Shown here: positions 16,640-19,821 of the stretch, piece by piece | Position numbering within the stretch: position 1 is the first letter of the stretch | Layout of the letters: every line of letters begins with the position of its first letter | Origin: Lentimicrobium sp. | GTDB lineage: Bacteria; Bacteroidota; Bacteroidia; Bacteroidales; Lentimicrobiaceae | Reading direction: 5' to 3' | Assembly (NCBI GenBank): GCA_019429275.1 | Contig: JAHYJC010000042.1 | Span: forward strand, 1-39,538 | DNA length: 39,538 nt | Notes under the pieces: model-generated | What the model was told of the DNA's origin: nothing | The model's database searches: none | What the model saw: the letters and a program-made list of their open reading frames with translations, nothing else | Made by a program: the position numbers and the translations under genes

Positions 16640-16745
16640 GCCCCTCTTTGCCTGATCACGGATCACTTTACTCCCGGGACGACCCTCTGATTAATCCCGA
16701 AGTTTCGTCCCGCACCTACGGGATAACCAACTGAGCCATGGGGAG
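16640..16745 (-). pseudogene. tRNA-Asn-derived pseudo-tRNA (copy A)
   Basis: The minus strand begins CTCCCCATGGCTCAGTTGG (acceptor 5' strand plus D-arm). It keeps the anticodon-arm and variable segment TTAATCAGAGGGTCG of the nearby tRNA-Asn and ends near GAGGGGCA. Where the D-stem 3' half and anticodon should be there is a hairpin (TCCCGTA, GG, TGCGGGA) plus CGAAACTTCG. The T-arm is replaced by a TCCCGGGA-containing stretch. The anticodon is gone, so it cannot act as a tRNA. Its first 30 nt overlap the end of the GIY-YIG gene. Confidence 0.7.
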
Positions 16746-17003
16746 ATCAACCTTTTCATTTGCGCAGATTCTGTCAATAAAGGTACGGGATTTCTGGTTT
16801 TTGATAAATTTCTCAACATTCATTGCAACTTTTCTTTCTTCGGAAACTTCAAAGAGAGCAATCAATTTCCATGGGCGATGTTTTGAAGTATAGGTAGGAT
16901 GATCTGATGAATTGTGCTCTTCAATCCTGCGGGCAAAATCATCTGTATGGCCCACATAGTAGTGGCCATCGGCAATGGATTCGAGAATGTAGATGAAAAA
17001 CAT
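16716..17003 (-). CDS. GIY-YIG nuclease-like protein, copy A
   Basis: A 95-residue single-domain GIY-YIG protein of the small UPF0213/YhbQ-like kind. The fold signature is IYI (4-6) and YYVGHT (15-20), with Arg at 25/26 and the metal-binding Glu in NVEKFIKNQ (E64). It would be expected to nick or cut DNA, but the cellular role of such stand-alone proteins is not settled. The last residues (LPMAQLVIP) come from the acceptor and D-arm of the overlapping pseudo-tRNA, so the native tail has been replaced by tRNA-derived sequence. The DNA is identical to copy B at 19422-19709 across the whole gene. Upstream are a hairpin and 14-16 nt of tRNA-Asn 3' end. Because of the identity, a recent duplication or gene conversion is likely. 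Confidence 0.9.
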   Translation of the reverse strand: MFFIYILESIADGHYYVGHTDDFARRIEEHNSSDHPTYTSKHRPWKLIALFEVSEERKVAMNVEKFIKNQKSRTFIDRICANEKVDLPMAQLVIP

Positions 17004-17014
17004 GATGATATAAA

Positions 17015-17037
17015 AAAAGCCGGTTTGACCGGCTTTT
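17015..17037. terminator. Hairpin between tRNA-Asn 3' remnant and GIY-YIG copy A
   Basis: AAAAGCCGG and CCGGCTTTT pair across a 5-nt loop. The same hairpin with one loop change follows the intact tRNA-Asn near copy B. It is probably the original tRNA-Asn terminator carried along. Confidence 0.75.
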
Positions 17038-17040
17038 ATT

Positions 17041-17079
17041 GCTCCCCCTGCTACTCAAAGTTGCAACATGATGACTTCC
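17041..17079. repeat. Left direct repeat of the Fic cassette (tRNA-Asn 3' end derived)
   Basis: Starts GCTCCCCCTGCTA, which is the complement of the tRNA-Asn 3' end (TAGCAGGGGGAGC), and goes on CTCAAAGTTGCAAC, GATGACT. It matches 18479-18518 at roughly four positions in five, in the same orientation. Confidence 0.65.
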
Positions 17080-17130
17080 TTTCCGGGAGTGGAAAGTTTT
17101 CAAACCGGATATGATAATTTAAGAATCAAC

Positions 17131-17156
17131 TGCAAATATAAATTTTTATATTTGCA
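17131..17156. promoter_or_regulatory. Operator 1 upstream of fic: perfect palindrome
   Basis: The arms TGCAAATATAAA and TTTATATTTGCA form a perfect 12-bp inverted repeat around TT. The right arm contains TATATTTG, a match to the TAnnTTTG promoter box. A second near-identical copy begins exactly 40 bp downstream. Confidence 0.75.
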
Positions 17157-17170
17157 TTTAATGATTTAAC

Positions 17171-17196
17171 TGCGAATATAAATTCTTATATTTGCA
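17171..17196. promoter_or_regulatory. Operator 2 and likely -7 box upstream of fic
   Basis: The arms TGCGAATATAAA and CTTATATTTGCA are nearly complementary. TATATTTG (17187-17194) within it lies 22 bp before the ATG at 17216, so a protein bound here would cover the promoter. The tandem arrangement suggests co-operative repression, possibly by the Fic protein's own C-terminal winged helix (inference). Confidence 0.7.
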
Positions 17197-17215
17197 AAAG
17201 GATAAATTGTCAGCC

Positions 17216-18352
17216 ATGGAGATAACCCGTTTCAAAGCAGGAAAATACAATAAACAATATGGCTATTCAAGTTTCTCGCCTGAACCTGTAAACCACGAAT
17301 GGCTGGTAAGCGATGCAAAGGTAAACCGACTGCTGAATGATGCTACCAGGAAACTTGGCGAGTTGAATGCCTTTTCGATGATGATTCCCGATGTGGATTT
17401 TTTTATCCGGATGCATATCACCAAGGAAGCTACCCGGAGCAGCAGGATTGAGGGGACTCAAACCAGCATACAAGAAGCCATTCAGACTGCTGAATACATC
17501 AGCCCCGAAAAACGCGACGACTGGCAGGAGGTTCATAACTACATTGAAGCTATGAATTTTTCAATTGCGCAACTGGAGGAACTTCCAATAAGTACGCGCT
17601 TACTGAAACTAACACATGAAAAATTATTGCAGGGAGTCCGTGGCACATACAAATTGCCGGGTGAGTTTCGTACCTCGCAAAACTGGATTGGGGGCGCCAC
17701 GCTTAATGATGCAACCTATATTCCGCCTCATCACAGTGAAGTGCCCGAATTGATGAGCGATCTTGAAAAACTTTTGAATAATGAGGATTTGCAGATTCCA
17801 CCACTTATCCGAATCGGAATTGCACATTATCAGTTTGAATCCATTCACCCTTTTCTTGATGGCAATGGGAGATTAGGGCGGTTACTCATAACACTTTATC
17901 TTGTAAGCAACAAAATACTAAGCAAACCTGCATTATATCTTTCCGATTTTTTTGAACGGAATCGCTCGCATTATTACGATAATCAAACCGCGGTGAGAAC
18001 TCAGAATAATCTGGTGCAATGGTTAACATTCTTCCTGGTGGGAGTACTTGAAACTGCCGAAAATTCAATTCAGACCTTTCATGAAATTATGAAATTGCGC
18101 AGTGACCTGGAAGAGAAACGAATTATTACATTGGGCAAAAAGGTTCCGGTGGCAATGCAACTGATCAGGTATTTATACACCAAGCCTATTGTAGATGCTT
18201 CCGAAGTGGCAAAATTACTTGCCGTGAATATTTCAACAGCAAACCGGTTAATTCAGGACTTTGAGAGACTCGGAATCCTTAGCGAAAAAACAGGATTCAA
18301 AAGAAACCGCATCTTCGTTTTTGAAAATTATTTGAAATTGTTTGAGCGATAG
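17216..18352 (+). CDS. Fic-family AMPylase (Fic/DOC with C-terminal winged helix)
   Basis: Transfers AMP from ATP to a hydroxyl side chain of a target protein. The 378 residues include a Fic N-terminal domain with the inhibitory motif SSRIEG (75-80, matching [S/T]xxxE[G/N]), which marks a class II, self-inhibited Fic. The catalytic core HPFLDGNGRLGR is at 211-222 (H211 catalytic; D215, N217 and R219/R222 bind ATP and metal). A C-terminal winged helix follows (about 300-378, SEVAKLLAVNISTANRLIQDF). The ATG at 17216 was chosen; a TTG at 17192 lies inside the second operator and just past the promoter box. The gene has two palindromic operators ahead of it and is flanked by direct repeats, so it looks like a mobile cargo gene. 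No separate antitoxin gene is adjacent, as expected when inhibition is built in. Confidence 0.93.
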   Translation: MEITRFKAGKYNKQYGYSSFSPEPVNHEWLVSDAKVNRLLNDATRKLGELNAFSMMIPDVDFFIRMHITKEATRSSRIEGTQTSIQEAIQTAEYISPEKRDDWQEVHNYIEAMNFSIAQLEELPISTRLLKLTHEKLLQGVRGTYKLPGEFRTSQNWIGGATLNDATYIPPHHSEVPELMSDLEKLLNNEDLQIPPLIRIGIAHYQFESIHPFLDGNGRLGRLLITLYLVSNKILSKPALYLSDFFERNRSHYYDNQTAVRTQNNLVQWLTFFLVGVLETAENSIQTFHEIMKLRSDLEEKRIITLGKKVPVAMQLIRYLYTKPIVDASEVAKLLAVNISTANRLIQDFERLGILSEKTGFKRNRIFVFENYLKLFER

Positions 18353-18478
18353 CATCCATGGTATAATCCTTTTTATCAAGAGGTTATAGTGGTTGGTAAG
18401 TGAAGGATGAAAAGGTTGAAGGAAAAAAGAAAAGTGAATAGCGAATAACTCTTCACCATTCACTGTCCACTATGTTGC

Positions 18479-18518
18479 GCTCCCCTTACTGCTCAAAGTT
18501 GTAACCGGATGACTCTCC
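18479..18518. repeat. Right direct repeat of the Fic cassette
   Basis: Starts GCTCCCCTTACTG and continues CTCAAAGTTGTAAC and GATGACT, matching 17041-17079. The rest of the 345-bp spacer 18353-18697 holds no recognisable gene; it contains the low-complexity motif TTCACCATTCACTGTCCAC seen often in Bacteroidota spacers. Confidence 0.6.
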
Positions 18519-18697
18519 GCTAATTTTATTAAAACATTGATATGGTGAACACTAAAAAATGAATTTTATTACAGGCTGTGCAACTCATGCTAAAAAAATC
18601 ACCGGCAGGCAGGTCATTATGACCGGCGTGTCCCCTCGGACAATAATTTCTGCAATAACAAGTTAGTTTCTTATTATTAACCAAATCATTTTCAGAC

Positions 18698-19050
18698 ATG
18701 ATTAAGACCATCAAGATCACTTCAATCATTTCCATGGTTTTTTGCTGATCGGCTTGTTTTTCAAAACAATGCACTGGCCGGGCGCAGAGGTTCTGCTGAT
18801 CTGCAGAACATTATCAGGAATCTTACTTTTCATAACGCTTCTTGCCGGCATACCCTCAAAGCTTTCAGGAGGAATAGAGAAGTTAAGTATTATTGCGGCT
18901 TCGCTGACATTGATCGTGGGCTTGTCAGCTTTTTTATTTAAAGCCCTGCGCTGGCCCGGAGCTGAAATTTTGGTCTGGATTGCTGATATCGGCATCCTAT
19001 TTTCCACGATCACAATCCTTATTGACGGATATCGCGAAAATTGGGACTGA
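18698..19050 (+). pseudogene. GldL-like small membrane protein, -1 frameshift
   Basis: With one T added to the T6 at 18738-18743 the frame runs from the ATG at 18698 (MIKTIKITSIISMVFLLIGL) to the TGA at 19048-19050, giving 117 residues. It has four hydrophobic segments and two copies of the GldL-type motif: FKTMHWPGAE and FKALRWPGAE. GldL itself is a T9SS/gliding motor subunit, but short proteins carrying only this repeat are common in Bacteroidota and of unknown role. As read, only the part from about 18742 is open, starting at a TTG. The single lesion is a homopolymer indel, so an assembly error is possible. It lies between the Fic cassette and the second GIY-YIG copy. Confidence 0.75.
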
Positions 19051-19130
19051 AAATAATCGCTGCTTTTTTCGCACTTATTCTCCTGTTAATTATAATCCTG
19101 TTAAAGTATGTTGATTGGATTATTCAATAA
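19041..19130 (+). CDS. Very small membrane protein, 29 aa (tentative)
   Basis: From a TTG at 19041, overlapping the end of the GldL-like gene by 10 bp, a 29-codon frame encodes GLKIIAAFFALILLLIII followed by LLKYVDWIIQ. This is one membrane helix with an aromatic/charged end. The tight overlap and the strongly hydrophobic content suggest translational coupling to the preceding gene. No homologue is recognised and the start codon is weak. Confidence 0.35.
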   Translation: MGLKIIAAFFALILLLIIILLKYVDWIIQ

Positions 19131-19307
19131 TTCCCTGGACAAAAAGGGTTTCTGACCACTTGTCGCCGGTTGGGGCTGACCACACCCGTTGAATAGGCTG
19201 GTCAATTGTATCAAACATTGGTAGTAATTTACAGCAACCTTACAGCGTCTTTGTTAAGATTGACTTTGCTGCCGGGAATAGTTGCAACCACGGCAACCTT
19301 TGGTAGA

Positions 19308-19343
19308 AAAGAACAAGCCGGCAGAAATGTCGGCTTGTTCTTT
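19308..19343 (-). terminator. Strong hairpin terminator after pseudo-tRNA B
   Basis: AAAGAACAAGCCG (19308-19320) and CGGCTTGTTCTTT (19331-19343) form a perfect 13-bp stem. On the minus strand it immediately follows the pseudo-tRNA 3' end, as a tRNA terminator would. The spacer 19131-19307 shows no gene. Confidence 0.8.
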
Positions 19344-19347
19344 AATG

Positions 19348-19451
19348 CTCCCCCTGCTAGATCCCGGATCGCTCCACTCCCGGGACGACCCTCTGATTAA
19401 TTCCGAAGCTTCGTCCCGTACCTACGGGATAACCAACTGAGCCATGGGGAG
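19348..19451 (-). pseudogene. tRNA-Asn-derived pseudo-tRNA (copy B)
   Basis: On the minus strand CTCCCCAT is followed by GGCTCAGTTGGTTA (D-arm), TTAATCAGAGGGTCG (anticodon 3' half and variable region) and CTAGCAGGGGGAG (T-stem 3' side and acceptor). All three blocks match the intact tRNA-Asn at 19748-19821. Two palindromic pieces replace the missing parts: TCCCGTA/GG/TACGGGA plus CGAAGCTTCG, and a TCCCGG...CCGGGA stem. CTCCCC still pairs with GGGGAG at the ends. The anticodon is lost. The first 30 nt double as the 3' end of the GIY-YIG gene. Confidence 0.75.
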
Positions 19452-19709
19452 ATCAACCTTTTCATTTGCGCAGATTCTGTCAATAAAGGTACGGGATTTC
19501 TGGTTTTTGATAAATTTCTCAACATTCATTGCAACTTTTCTTTCTTCGGAAACTTCAAAGAGAGCAATCAATTTCCATGGGCGATGTTTTGAAGTATAGG
19601 TAGGATGATCTGATGAATTGTGCTCTTCAATCCTGCGGGCAAAATCATCTGTATGGCCCACATAGTAGTGGCCATCGGCAATGGATTCGAGAATGTAGAT
19701 GAAAAACAT
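19422..19709 (-). CDS. GIY-YIG nuclease-like protein, copy B
   Basis: Its 95 residues and its DNA are identical to copy A at 16716-17003. This copy keeps the whole context: intact tRNA-Asn, hairpin, nuclease gene and pseudo-tRNA, all on the minus strand and within about 475 bp. The start is 37 bp past the tRNA end, behind the tRNA's terminator. The stop TAG lies in the first palindrome of the pseudo-tRNA (ATCCCGTAG). Outside the gene the two copies differ at several positions in 70 bp, so the coding part is more conserved than its edges. Confidence 0.9.
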   Translation of the reverse strand: MFFIYILESIADGHYYVGHTDDFARRIEEHNSSDHPTYTSKHRPWKLIALFEVSEERKVAMNVEKFIKNQKSRTFIDRICANEKVDLPMAQLVIP

Positions 19710-19720
19710 GATGATATAAA

Positions 19721-19743
19721 AAAAGCCGGATTGACCGGCTTTT
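19721..19743 (-). terminator. Hairpin terminator of tRNA-Asn
   Basis: AAAAGCCGG and CCGGCTTTT around a 5-nt loop, 5 bp past the tRNA 3' end, followed on the minus strand by a T run. Confidence 0.8.
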
Positions 19744-19747
19744 ATTG

Positions 19748-19821
19748 CTCCCCCTGCTAGACTTGAACTAGCGACCCTCTGATTAACAGTCAGATGCTCT
19801 AACCAACTGAGCTAAGGAGGA
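19748..19821 (-). tRNA. tRNA-Asn (anticodon GTT)
   Basis: A full cloverleaf of 74 nt can be drawn: acceptor TCCTCCT/AGGGGGA, D-stem GCTC/GAGC, anticodon stem TCTGA/TCAGA around loop CTGTTAA (anticodon GTT), variable loop GGGTC, and T-stem GCTAG/CTAGC with loop TTCAAGT. The discriminator is G, and CCA is not encoded. It is the intact parent of the tRNA-like fragments at 16640-16745, 17039-17053 and 19348-19451. Confidence 0.97.

What the first reader, a model, noticed from the sequence alone, without database searches (positions are those of the whole stretch)
16640..19821. Two identical GIY-YIG genes embedded in tRNA-Asn fragments around an intact tRNA-Asn
The order on the minus strand at copy B is intact tRNA-Asn, tRNA terminator, GIY-YIG gene, pseudo-tRNA, second terminator. 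Copy A, 2.7 kb away, repeats hairpin, gene and pseudo-tRNA, and keeps only the last 14-16 nt of the tRNA. About 310 bp are identical, while the flanks differ. This looks like a minimal element made of a nuclease gene plus tRNA-derived ends that copies itself at, or is converted through, tRNA-Asn. Small GIY-YIG genes beside tRNAs are a pattern I recall from Bacteroidota and CPR genomes, but a tRNA-bounded unit of this design is not one I know as described.
Basis: partly seen in the sequence, partly recalled or inferred. Interest (0 to 1): 0.78.

Follow-up and report, generated by a model that had tools for sequence, protein, structure and literature searches.

The report
Nuclease genes nested in tRNA genes
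Bacteria of the Bacteroidota phylum carry many tiny DNA-cutting genes, each wedged into one particular transfer-RNA gene that stays whole beside a hairpin-scarred partial copy; this looks like an undescribed kind of mobile gene that lives off essential genes without breaking them.

Summary
Copy B is intact tRNA-Asn, terminator, a 95-aa GIY-YIG gene, then a pseudo-tRNA-Asn with hairpin inserts. Copy A lies 2,706 bp away with an identical ORF, 9 mismatches in 400 columns, and only the tRNA's last 13 nt. Six more such genes are in the own genome; five have a tRNA nearby. Of 81 small GIY-YIG genes listed from 60 genomes, 43 have an intact tRNA within 800 bp, 43 of 43 on the same strand; 0 of 40 UvrC control loci do. 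35 of 39 testable ones carry a remnant or copy of that tRNA on the other side. Protein clades follow tRNA isotype. In a held-out test 23 of 29 new loci had an upstream same-strand tRNA. Occupied-versus-empty genomes place units inside tRNA-Leu (464-bp difference at nt 24, upstream sequence plus nt 1-24 duplicated) and tRNA-Asn. Best reading: isotype-specific, homing-like GIY-YIG elements that enter tRNA genes, preserve function by duplicating or replacing tRNA parts, and leave a hairpin-tagged pseudo-tRNA. Cleavage and movement are inferred, not shown. Ten paper searches found no such element in bacterial chromosomes; phage SegB behaves most like it.

The parts
19747..19821 (-). intact tRNA-Asn(GTT), the host gene of the element
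   Evidence: ARAGORN; the only match of the tRNA-Asn query above 86% identity in this genome
19718..19746 (-). terminator hairpin T1 directly after the tRNA
   Evidence: sequence; in occupied relatives G006 and G012 the native terminator lies behind the pseudo-tRNA instead
19422..19709 (-). GIY-YIG nuclease gene, copy B, 95 aa; last codons read into the pseudo-tRNA and its hairpin
   Evidence: PF01541 64.1 bits, cut-off 22.6; Y5, Y16, G18, R26, E64 invariant; fold model pLDDT 84.9 nearest SLX1/UPF0213
19347..19450 (-). pseudo-tRNA-Asn, copy B (aligned to tRNA nt 1-75, two hairpin inserts)
   Evidence: alignment to tRNA-Asn
19414..19429 (.). hairpin TCCCGTAGGTACGGGA replacing the 5' strand of the anticodon arm, copy B; holds the ORF's stop codon
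19362..19385 (.). second hairpin insert in the T arm, copy B
   Evidence: TCCCGG-gagtggagcgat-CCGGGA
19305..19346 (-). second terminator-like hairpin T2 after the pseudo-tRNA
   Evidence: inverted repeat I8
17041..17053 (-). last 13 nt of tRNA-Asn, left edge of copy A
17012..17040 (-). terminator hairpin of copy A (1 mismatch to T1)
16716..17003 (-). GIY-YIG nuclease gene, copy A, identical DNA
16654..16744 (-). pseudo-tRNA-Asn, copy A, with the same hairpins (one at 16708-16723)
18479..18514 (-). possible further tRNA 3'-end-like fragment, 83% like 17041-17076
   Evidence: direct repeat D7; weak, a two-copy family

Best explanation
These are self-propagating GIY-YIG nuclease genes adapted to tRNA genes. 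Shown: small one-domain, Slx1-like nuclease genes sit on the same strand beside mostly one tRNA isotype per protein clade; the gene lies between a complete tRNA and a partial tRNA copy; occupied and empty genomes differ by the whole unit; the partial copy usually carries a hairpin in the D, anticodon or T arm; the genes are under purifying selection. Inferred: the nuclease cuts an element-free tRNA gene in the D/anticodon-arm region; repair from an element-bearing copy, using homology in the two tRNA halves, installs the gene. The part whose loss would break the tRNA is duplicated (upstream sequence plus nt 1-24 at Leu) or replaced (3' part plus new terminator at Asn; a wholly different tRNA body at Pro), so the essential tRNA survives. 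The hairpin sits at the junction with native sequence and would destroy the target in the partial copy. Repeated cutting would also produce the tandem units and tandem tRNA arrays that are seen.
For: Census: of 81 small GIY-YIG genes listed (60 genomes, own included; the genes come from 29 of them), 34 have an intact tRNA within 250 bp and 43 within 800 bp, 43 of 43 same strand. Control: 0 of 40 UvrC stretches of mostly 4.8 kb hold a tRNA. Remnant or copy of that tRNA on the other side: 35 of 39 testable, 0 of 200 shuffles as good. Tree of 88 domains: non-tRNA group splits off (SH-aLRT 97), isotype labels need 15 changes against 52.5 shuffled, 0 of 200 as low. Related loci: 27 of 36 have an intact same-strand tRNA upstream, 26 Asn, 1 His. 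Held-out Val-type query in 395 genomes: 23 of 29 new loci have an upstream same-strand tRNA, 18 of them Val(TAC). Empty sites: Leu, G012 versus G004, 464 bp with an 82-bp direct repeat, flanks 89-90%; Asn, native terminator behind the pseudo-tRNA in G006 and G012. Hairpins: 52 of 78 against 2.0 expected, 3 of 99 intact tRNAs (stricter forms 21 against 0.5 and 16 against 0.6); held-out 18 of 28 against 0.66 (one of the 18, L256, is a terminator). dN/dS 0.065-0.22 in 9 of 14 pairs. Recoded tRNA bodies: Pro 4 of 4 occupied, 0 of 8 element-free; Asn 3 of 3 occupied, 0 of 8 element-free.
Against: No cleavage or movement observed. The intact tRNA next to the gene should itself be a target; recoding that could explain immunity is seen for Pro and slightly for Asn, but 5 of 6 Asp and 2 of 2 Leu occupied tRNAs equal an element-free body. 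Isotype-clade agreement is also expected from plain vertical descent at one locus. The Leu difference could be precise loss by recombination between direct repeats instead of gain. On the UvrC tree element presence needs only 2-3 changes per tRNA. Five of the 65 rows in the tree's tRNA group have no tRNA label, and Asn, Pro, Arg, Leu and Phe labels are each split over more than one place. Four of 39 testable genes have no significant remnant. No close relative was found in phages or plasmids (best 41% over 69% of the query), nor in one narrow viral-contig scan. Hairpin type is not strictly tied to isotype: TCTCGTCA hairpins also sit in pseudo-tRNA-Gly and -Arg without any gene.
Confidence: 0.62

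Rival explanations
1. Duplication and decay without mobility: an old GIY-YIG gene sits downstream of tRNA genes by vertical descent; recombination between tRNA copies makes tandem units, and redundant tRNA copies decay and collect hairpin repeats.
For: Tandem units at 7 census sites, 294-623 bp apart (Val in G041 and G001, Arg in G029, Phe in G020, Asp in G000, Pro in G044, Asn in G012); tandem intact tRNA-Asn arrays (L069 five, L072 and L075 three); clades match isotypes.
Against: Sister genomes differ by one precise block at Leu; terminator swap at Asn; mirror layout at Leu/Arg; similar hairpins at the same tRNA sites in distant families; own-genome genes at Asn, Asp, Leu, Pro and Arg tRNAs.
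Confidence: 0.2
2. Host-useful tRNA amplifier: the nuclease makes breaks that expand the tRNA gene, as phage SegB does, to outlast tRNA-cutting toxins or defences.
For: tRNA arrays and tandem units as above; SegB-dependent amplification of tRNA-Tyr is published (PMC13096335, passages seen).
Against: 22 of the 27 genome-contig loci with an intact tRNA have only one within 1.2 kb; partial copies look non-functional (no Rfam tRNA match); patchy presence in one genus.
Confidence: 0.1
3. A tRNA-cleaving toxin with the pseudo-tRNA as decoy RNA.
For: Isotype-specific pairing of protein and tRNA-like sequence.
Against: Fold nearest to the DNA nuclease SLX1 and to UPF0213; no PADLOC match; hairpins destroy different arms in different loci, and the mirror class keeps only tRNA nt 1-34 to 1-48 with a hairpin inside; Rfam finds no tRNA in the pseudo copies of 20 sources searched.
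Confidence: 0.04
4. Worn-down tRNA-site integrative element or group I intron.
For: tRNA genes are usual sites for both (recalled).
Against: No integrase in the unit, about 300-460 bp only; junctions in the tRNA body; no group I or II intron match in the 20 sources searched.
Confidence: 0.02

Closest known systems
SegB and other free-standing GIY-YIG homing endonucleases of T-even phages
   Same: Free-standing GIY-YIG gene beside tRNA genes; SegB cuts tRNA-containing DNA and promotes amplification by recombination (PMC13096335 and PMC2988022, passages).
   Different: Here chromosomal, protein clades matched to tRNA isotypes, inside the tRNA gene with a hairpin-tagged partial tRNA. Direct comparison with SegB was not run; the group I intron endonuclease model TIGR01453 gives 21.3 bits, cut-off 56.05.
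SLX1 / UPF0213 GIY-YIG proteins
   Same: Single GIY-YIG domain; nearest solved structures 1zg2, 1ywl and SLX1.
   Different: SLX1 is a structure-specific nuclease with partner SLX4; these genes are tRNA-embedded and multi-copy.
REP palindromes with RAYT transposases (REPtrons)
   Same: A small gene next to short hairpins that also occur without it (PMC3733652, passages).
   Different: HUH tyrosine transposase there, GIY-YIG here; hairpins here lie inside tRNA copies.
tRNA-targeted integrative elements (recalled)
   Same: Occupy tRNA genes and keep the tRNA working.
   Different: No integrase; junction in the tRNA body; about 300-460 bp.
Fungal mitochondrial endonuclease insertions that bring a replacement gene end (recalled, not looked up)
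   Same: Insertion splits a gene and supplies a substitute part.
   Different: Protein gene in an organelle; no hairpin tag.

Membership tests
GIY-YIG nuclease domain (PF01541) | Profile match above curated cut-off | tested here: met
   64.1 bits against 22.6
GIY-YIG nuclease domain (PF01541) | Conserved Tyr/Tyr-Gly/Arg/Glu active-site columns | tested here: met
   Y5, Y16, G18, R26, E64 invariant in 17 sequences; role of these residues recalled
GIY-YIG nuclease domain (PF01541) | Nuclease activity | not testable with these tools
   needs protein
Free-standing homing endonuclease gene | Gene not in an intron or intein, at its target locus | tested here: met
   no Rfam intron in the 20 sources searched; tRNA neighbour. 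That the tRNA is the target is inferred
Free-standing homing endonuclease gene | Occupied and empty alleles of the same site exist | tested here: met
   Leu G004/G012; Asn G006, G012 versus G010, G013, G018
Free-standing homing endonuclease gene | Element presence destroys or alters the cut site in its own allele | tested here: inconclusive
   partial copy is hairpin-tagged; intact tRNA altered for Pro and Asn, not for 5 of 6 Asp and 2 of 2 Leu
Free-standing homing endonuclease gene | Cuts the empty allele; super-Mendelian inheritance | not testable with these tools
   needs cleavage and homing assay
Group I intron endonuclease (TIGR01453) | Score above family cut-off | tested here: not met
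   21.3 bits, cut-off 56.05
REPtron (REP + RAYT) | HUH tyrosine transposase | tested here: not met
   the encoded protein is GIY-YIG
tRNA-targeted integrative element | Integrase gene in the unit | tested here: not met
   the ~400-bp window unit holds only the GIY-YIG ORF as a Pfam-recognised gene; the Leu block is 464 bp

The most novel reading that the evidence does not exclude
A separate class of bacterial mobile element: a structure-guided (Slx1-like) GIY-YIG nuclease that recognises the hairpin-rich tRNA gene itself, inserts hairpin plus gene into it, and acts as a natural cleave-and-rescue drive by carrying or regenerating a working, sometimes recoded, tRNA. Hairpin-only pseudo-tRNA arrays (tRNA-Gly, tRNA-Arg) would be its non-autonomous passengers, and the sister GIY-YIG clade flanked by dispersed repeats its non-tRNA branch.
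Probability: 0.35. Interest if true: 0.92.

Novelty: new variant of a known kind. Interest (0 to 1): 0.82.

Why it matters
Small GIY-YIG genes are common in Bacteroidota and, to my knowledge, have no assigned role; one such protein finds relatives in 178 of 395 genomes of the class (only 29 of these loci were examined for tRNAs). If the reading holds, they form a large population of parasites of essential RNA genes, explain pseudo-tRNAs and ORFs that run into tRNA sequence, show how a selfish gene can live in an essential single-copy gene, and may move or swap tRNA alleles between species (tRNA-Pro). The isotype-matched protein clades also make a ready set for studying how a 90-residue nuclease reads tRNA genes.

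Tried and rejected
Palindromes as plain dispersed repeats: TCCCGN6CGGGA has 8 places in the own genome against 1 for the control pattern; two are the window copies and the other six show no tRNA similarity, so that motif by itself is not evidence. Other RNA genes as hosts of the tRNA-less GIY-YIG genes: Rfam gave 2 matches in 40 loci, both tRNA. Phage or plasmid carriage: only distant matches in 4 and 3 records; one viral-contig scan with a single peptide pattern confirmed nothing. tRNA-Pro recoding as exclusive to elements: 8 of 395 class genomes (own included) hold a similar tRNA-Pro; G000, G073, G274 and G066 have the gene next to it, while G136, G202, G217 and G232 show none in the 480 bp printed downstream, so the allele is not exclusive. 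The first UvrC control (0 of 24) was weak, since 20 of its stretches had only about 100 bp of flank and one (G003) is not UvrC; it was replaced by 40 stretches with flanks. Notes written on the way hold counts since corrected: one search gave 33 of 37 for (recount 35 of 39) and about 45 for the census (43 within 800 bp), and spoke of own + 60 relatives (it is 60 with the own).

Selections: the list was cut off by the tool, so the 81 genes are those listed with open frame under 220 aa, plus G000:C6; one of them, G018:C103, is a broken UvrC piece, and several are cut by contig ends. The 39 testable genes leave out 4 with under 40 bp on the far side. One miss there (G029:C217 first copy) was compared with a neighbouring tRNA-Glu; searches show a tRNA-Arg remnant. 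In G020 the far-side match is a nearly whole tRNA-like copy. The tree used 88 rows: domains under 60 aa dropped, 15 of 36 genome-contig loci kept. G010:C68 is labelled Ser because tRNA-Ser precedes tRNA-Pro there. The held-out loci are 29 of the best matches, at most one per genome. The UvrC tree dropped G003 and has no G016. dN/dS exceptions among 14 pairs: L062/L066 1.03 on 5 changes, G000 Asp tandem 0.45, G057 0.39, two pairs without synonymous changes. In one search G018 counts as element-free for Asp although its downstream side begins with masked letters.
Full report
What is in the window. The window is one whole contig of the genome. On the minus strand the order at copy B is tRNA-Asn (19747-19821), terminator T1, GIY-YIG ORF (19422-19709), pseudo-tRNA-Asn (19347-19450), terminator-like hairpin T2. 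Copy A (16654-17053) lacks the tRNA except its last 13 nt. The ORFs are identical over 288 bp; the shared 400 columns have 9 mismatches, one in the terminator and eight in the pseudo-tRNA. Between the copies lie an ORF of 102 aa without a Pfam match and a Fic-domain gene. The protein is a bare GIY-YIG domain with invariant Y5, Y16, G18, R26 and E64 in 17 relatives. A model (pLDDT 84.9) is nearest to SLX1 and UPF0213 structures, further from I-TevI.

It is not a single oddity. The own genome holds eight matches of this kind. Besides the Asn pair there are genes next to tRNA-Arg(CCG), tRNA-Pro(TGG), a tandem pair after tRNA-Asp, one at tRNA-Leu(CAA), and one beside a CRISPR array that carries a pseudo-tRNA-Val downstream. 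In 60 genomes (own and 59 relatives), 81 listed small GIY-YIG genes from 29 genomes were examined. An intact tRNA lies within 250 bp of 34 and within 800 bp of 43, in 43 of 43 on the same strand (37 upstream, 6 downstream). As control, 0 of 40 UvrC stretches, mostly 4.8 kb with flanks, hold a tRNA. On the far side of the gene, 35 of 39 testable cases hold a piece or copy of that same tRNA that no shuffle of 200 matched; the four misses are G029:C217 first copy (compared with the wrong tRNA), G000:C50, G030:C205 and G018:C86.

Protein clades and tRNA isotypes. A tree of 88 domains separates a group of 23 without tRNAs from the other 65 (SH-aLRT 97), of which 60 bear a tRNA label and 5 do not. 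Clades follow isotype: Asn (98, with one His and one unlabelled row), Asp (100), Pro(TGG) (98), Val (81) and a mixed Arg/Leu clade (93); 15 label changes against 52.5 for shuffled labels. With 74 columns many forks stay open, and Asn also appears in two other places. A scan of genome contigs with the window protein gave 36 loci, Bacteroidota by their record names as far as I can place them; 27 have an upstream same-strand tRNA, 26 Asn and 1 His. Of the other nine, five begin within about 230 bp of a contig end, and four (L056, L065, L068, L082) carry a tRNA-Asn remnant. As a held-out test a Val-type protein was searched in 395 genomes of the class: 178 have a match, and of 29 new loci among the best, 23 have an upstream same-strand tRNA 20-412 bp away (18 Val, 2 Arg(TCT), 1 Arg(ACG), 2 Pro(GGG)). 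Of the six others, L237 and L248 have a tRNA-Val-like stretch upstream, L245 and L257 one downstream, L259 has tRNA-Ala 106 bp downstream, and L264 is unclear.

The hairpin tag. The partial tRNA is not randomly decayed: in most loci a GC-rich hairpin replaces or invades its body. At Val the whole anticodon stem-loop is exchanged (GCA-TCCCG..CGGGA-GGGTC). At Asn the anticodon arm's 5' strand is replaced, so that the ORF, which reads through the tRNA 5' half, ends in the hairpin: 12 of 17 aligned proteins end in a V-R-V-(P/S)-x-x-R-D tail. At Asp it is TCTCGTCA..TGACGAGA, at Pro(TGG) CCCCGCC..GGCGGGG, at Leu and Arg CCTGCCTG..CAGGCAGG in the D loop. By a fixed criterion (arms of 6 or more, loop 3-6, 4 or more G/C) 52 of 78 tRNA-type loci have such a hairpin within 200 bp against 2.0 expected, 4 of 31 other loci against 0.7, and 3 of 99 intact tRNAs; held-out loci 18 of 28 against 0.66, one of them a terminator. 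The TCTCGTCA type also sits in tandem pseudo-tRNA-Gly pieces (three copies in G001, four in G014, one in G018) and in pseudo-tRNA-Arg in G013, without any gene, so hairpins can occur alone and are not bound to one isotype.

Occupied and empty sites. Leu: G004 (occupied) and G012 (empty) are sisters on the UvrC tree (100/99) with 89-90% identical flanks. G004 has 464 extra bp: hairpin, tRNA-like piece and gene, plus an identical direct repeat of 82 bp made of upstream sequence and tRNA nt 1-24. So the unit lies at tRNA nt 24, and the tRNA is whole because its front part exists twice. Gain or precise loss cannot be told apart. Asn: of 14 genomes of the genus (own included) with a readable tRNA-Asn locus, 8 are clean, 3 are occupied (G000, G006, G012) and 3 hold gene-less pseudo-tRNA relics (G001, G009, G014). 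The terminator that directly follows the tRNA in G010, G013 and G018 is found behind gene and pseudo-tRNA in G006 (91 columns, 88%, starting about tRNA nt 61) and G012 (38-42 columns). Hence the unit sits inside the tRNA gene and brings, or has acquired, another terminator.

Replaced tRNA. At Pro the four occupied genomes share one tRNA-Pro body that differs in D, anticodon and T stems, with pairing kept, from the eight element-free ones called; of four relic genomes G013 has it and G001, G005 and G014 do not. The species tree needs three changes for it. At Asn the body is constant in 8 of 8 element-free genomes and changed in 3 of 3 occupied and 1 of 3 relic ones. Asp (5 of 6) and Leu (2 of 2) show no change. 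A recoded, cut-resistant tRNA therefore fits two isotypes and is unsupported in two. A similar tRNA-Pro also occurs without a gene in other families.

Selection and age. dN/dS is 0.065-0.22 in 9 of 14 pairs. Within the genus, presence needs 2 changes on the UvrC tree for Asn, 3 for Asp, 3 for Pro and 2 for Leu: patchy, but not wildly so.

Mechanism. Shown: the anatomy, same-strand rule, isotype matching, occupied/empty difference, hairpin tag and purifying selection. Inferred: cleavage of the tRNA gene near the D or anticodon arm, and recombination through tRNA halves, which would copy gene and replacement tRNA part together. The Slx1-like fold and hairpin-rich target suggest structure-guided cutting. 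The weak point is the intact tRNA beside the gene, which should also be a target. Copy A and the Asp copy in G010 (which also keeps only the last 16 tRNA nt, 8.5 kb from its tRNA) look like ectopic or broken-off copies.

Known systems. Ten paper searches brought up no account of such elements in bacterial chromosomes in their listings; the library lacks most subscription papers. SegB is the nearest in behaviour: a free-standing GIY-YIG enzyme at tRNA genes that drives their amplification by recombination (PMC13096335, PMC2988022; passages). The superfamily survey PMC1564403 mentions tRNA in its text only through an Slx1-like protein fused to a methyltransferase for tRNA position 18 (passages), a curious lead since several junctions lie at nt 17-24.

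Noticed in passing
L010, L012, L014, L015, L019, L031, L088, L102 and other loci of the non-tRNA GIY-YIG clade: 20 of 22 testable genes of the sister GIY-YIG clade have the same repeat on both flanks (0 of 100 shuffles), often palindromes such as CGTCATTGCGAGCGTAGCGAAGCAATCT. A survey of CGTC-type REPs states that they lack a dedicated transposase (PMC3733652, passages); whether these repeats are that type was not tested.
   Followed up: partly
L265 250-620, L266 280-720, L269 250-560, L268 350-650: Arrays of hairpin-tagged 5' halves of tRNA-Gly(CCC), 71-72 bp apart, directly upstream of the intact gene (3, 4 and 1 copies), and two hairpin-tagged tRNA-Arg-like pieces in L268, with no GIY-YIG gene seen.
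   Followed up: partly
L190-L206: The tRNA-Ser(GCT)-tRNA-Pro(TGG) locus carries two very different tRNA-Pro alleles within one genus.
   Followed up: partly
L008: A Val-type GIY-YIG gene with pseudo-tRNA directly behind the last repeats of a CRISPR array in the own genome.
   Followed up: no
window 17131-17196: An AT-rich 31-bp inverted repeat (84%) directly upstream of the Fic gene at 17192-18352.
   Followed up: no
L069, L072, L075: Three to five intact tRNA-Asn genes in tandem upstream of the GIY-YIG gene.
   Followed up: no
L122 upstream of the tRNA: In G012 hairpin-bearing partial tRNA-Asn copies also lie upstream of the intact tRNA-Asn.
   Followed up: no
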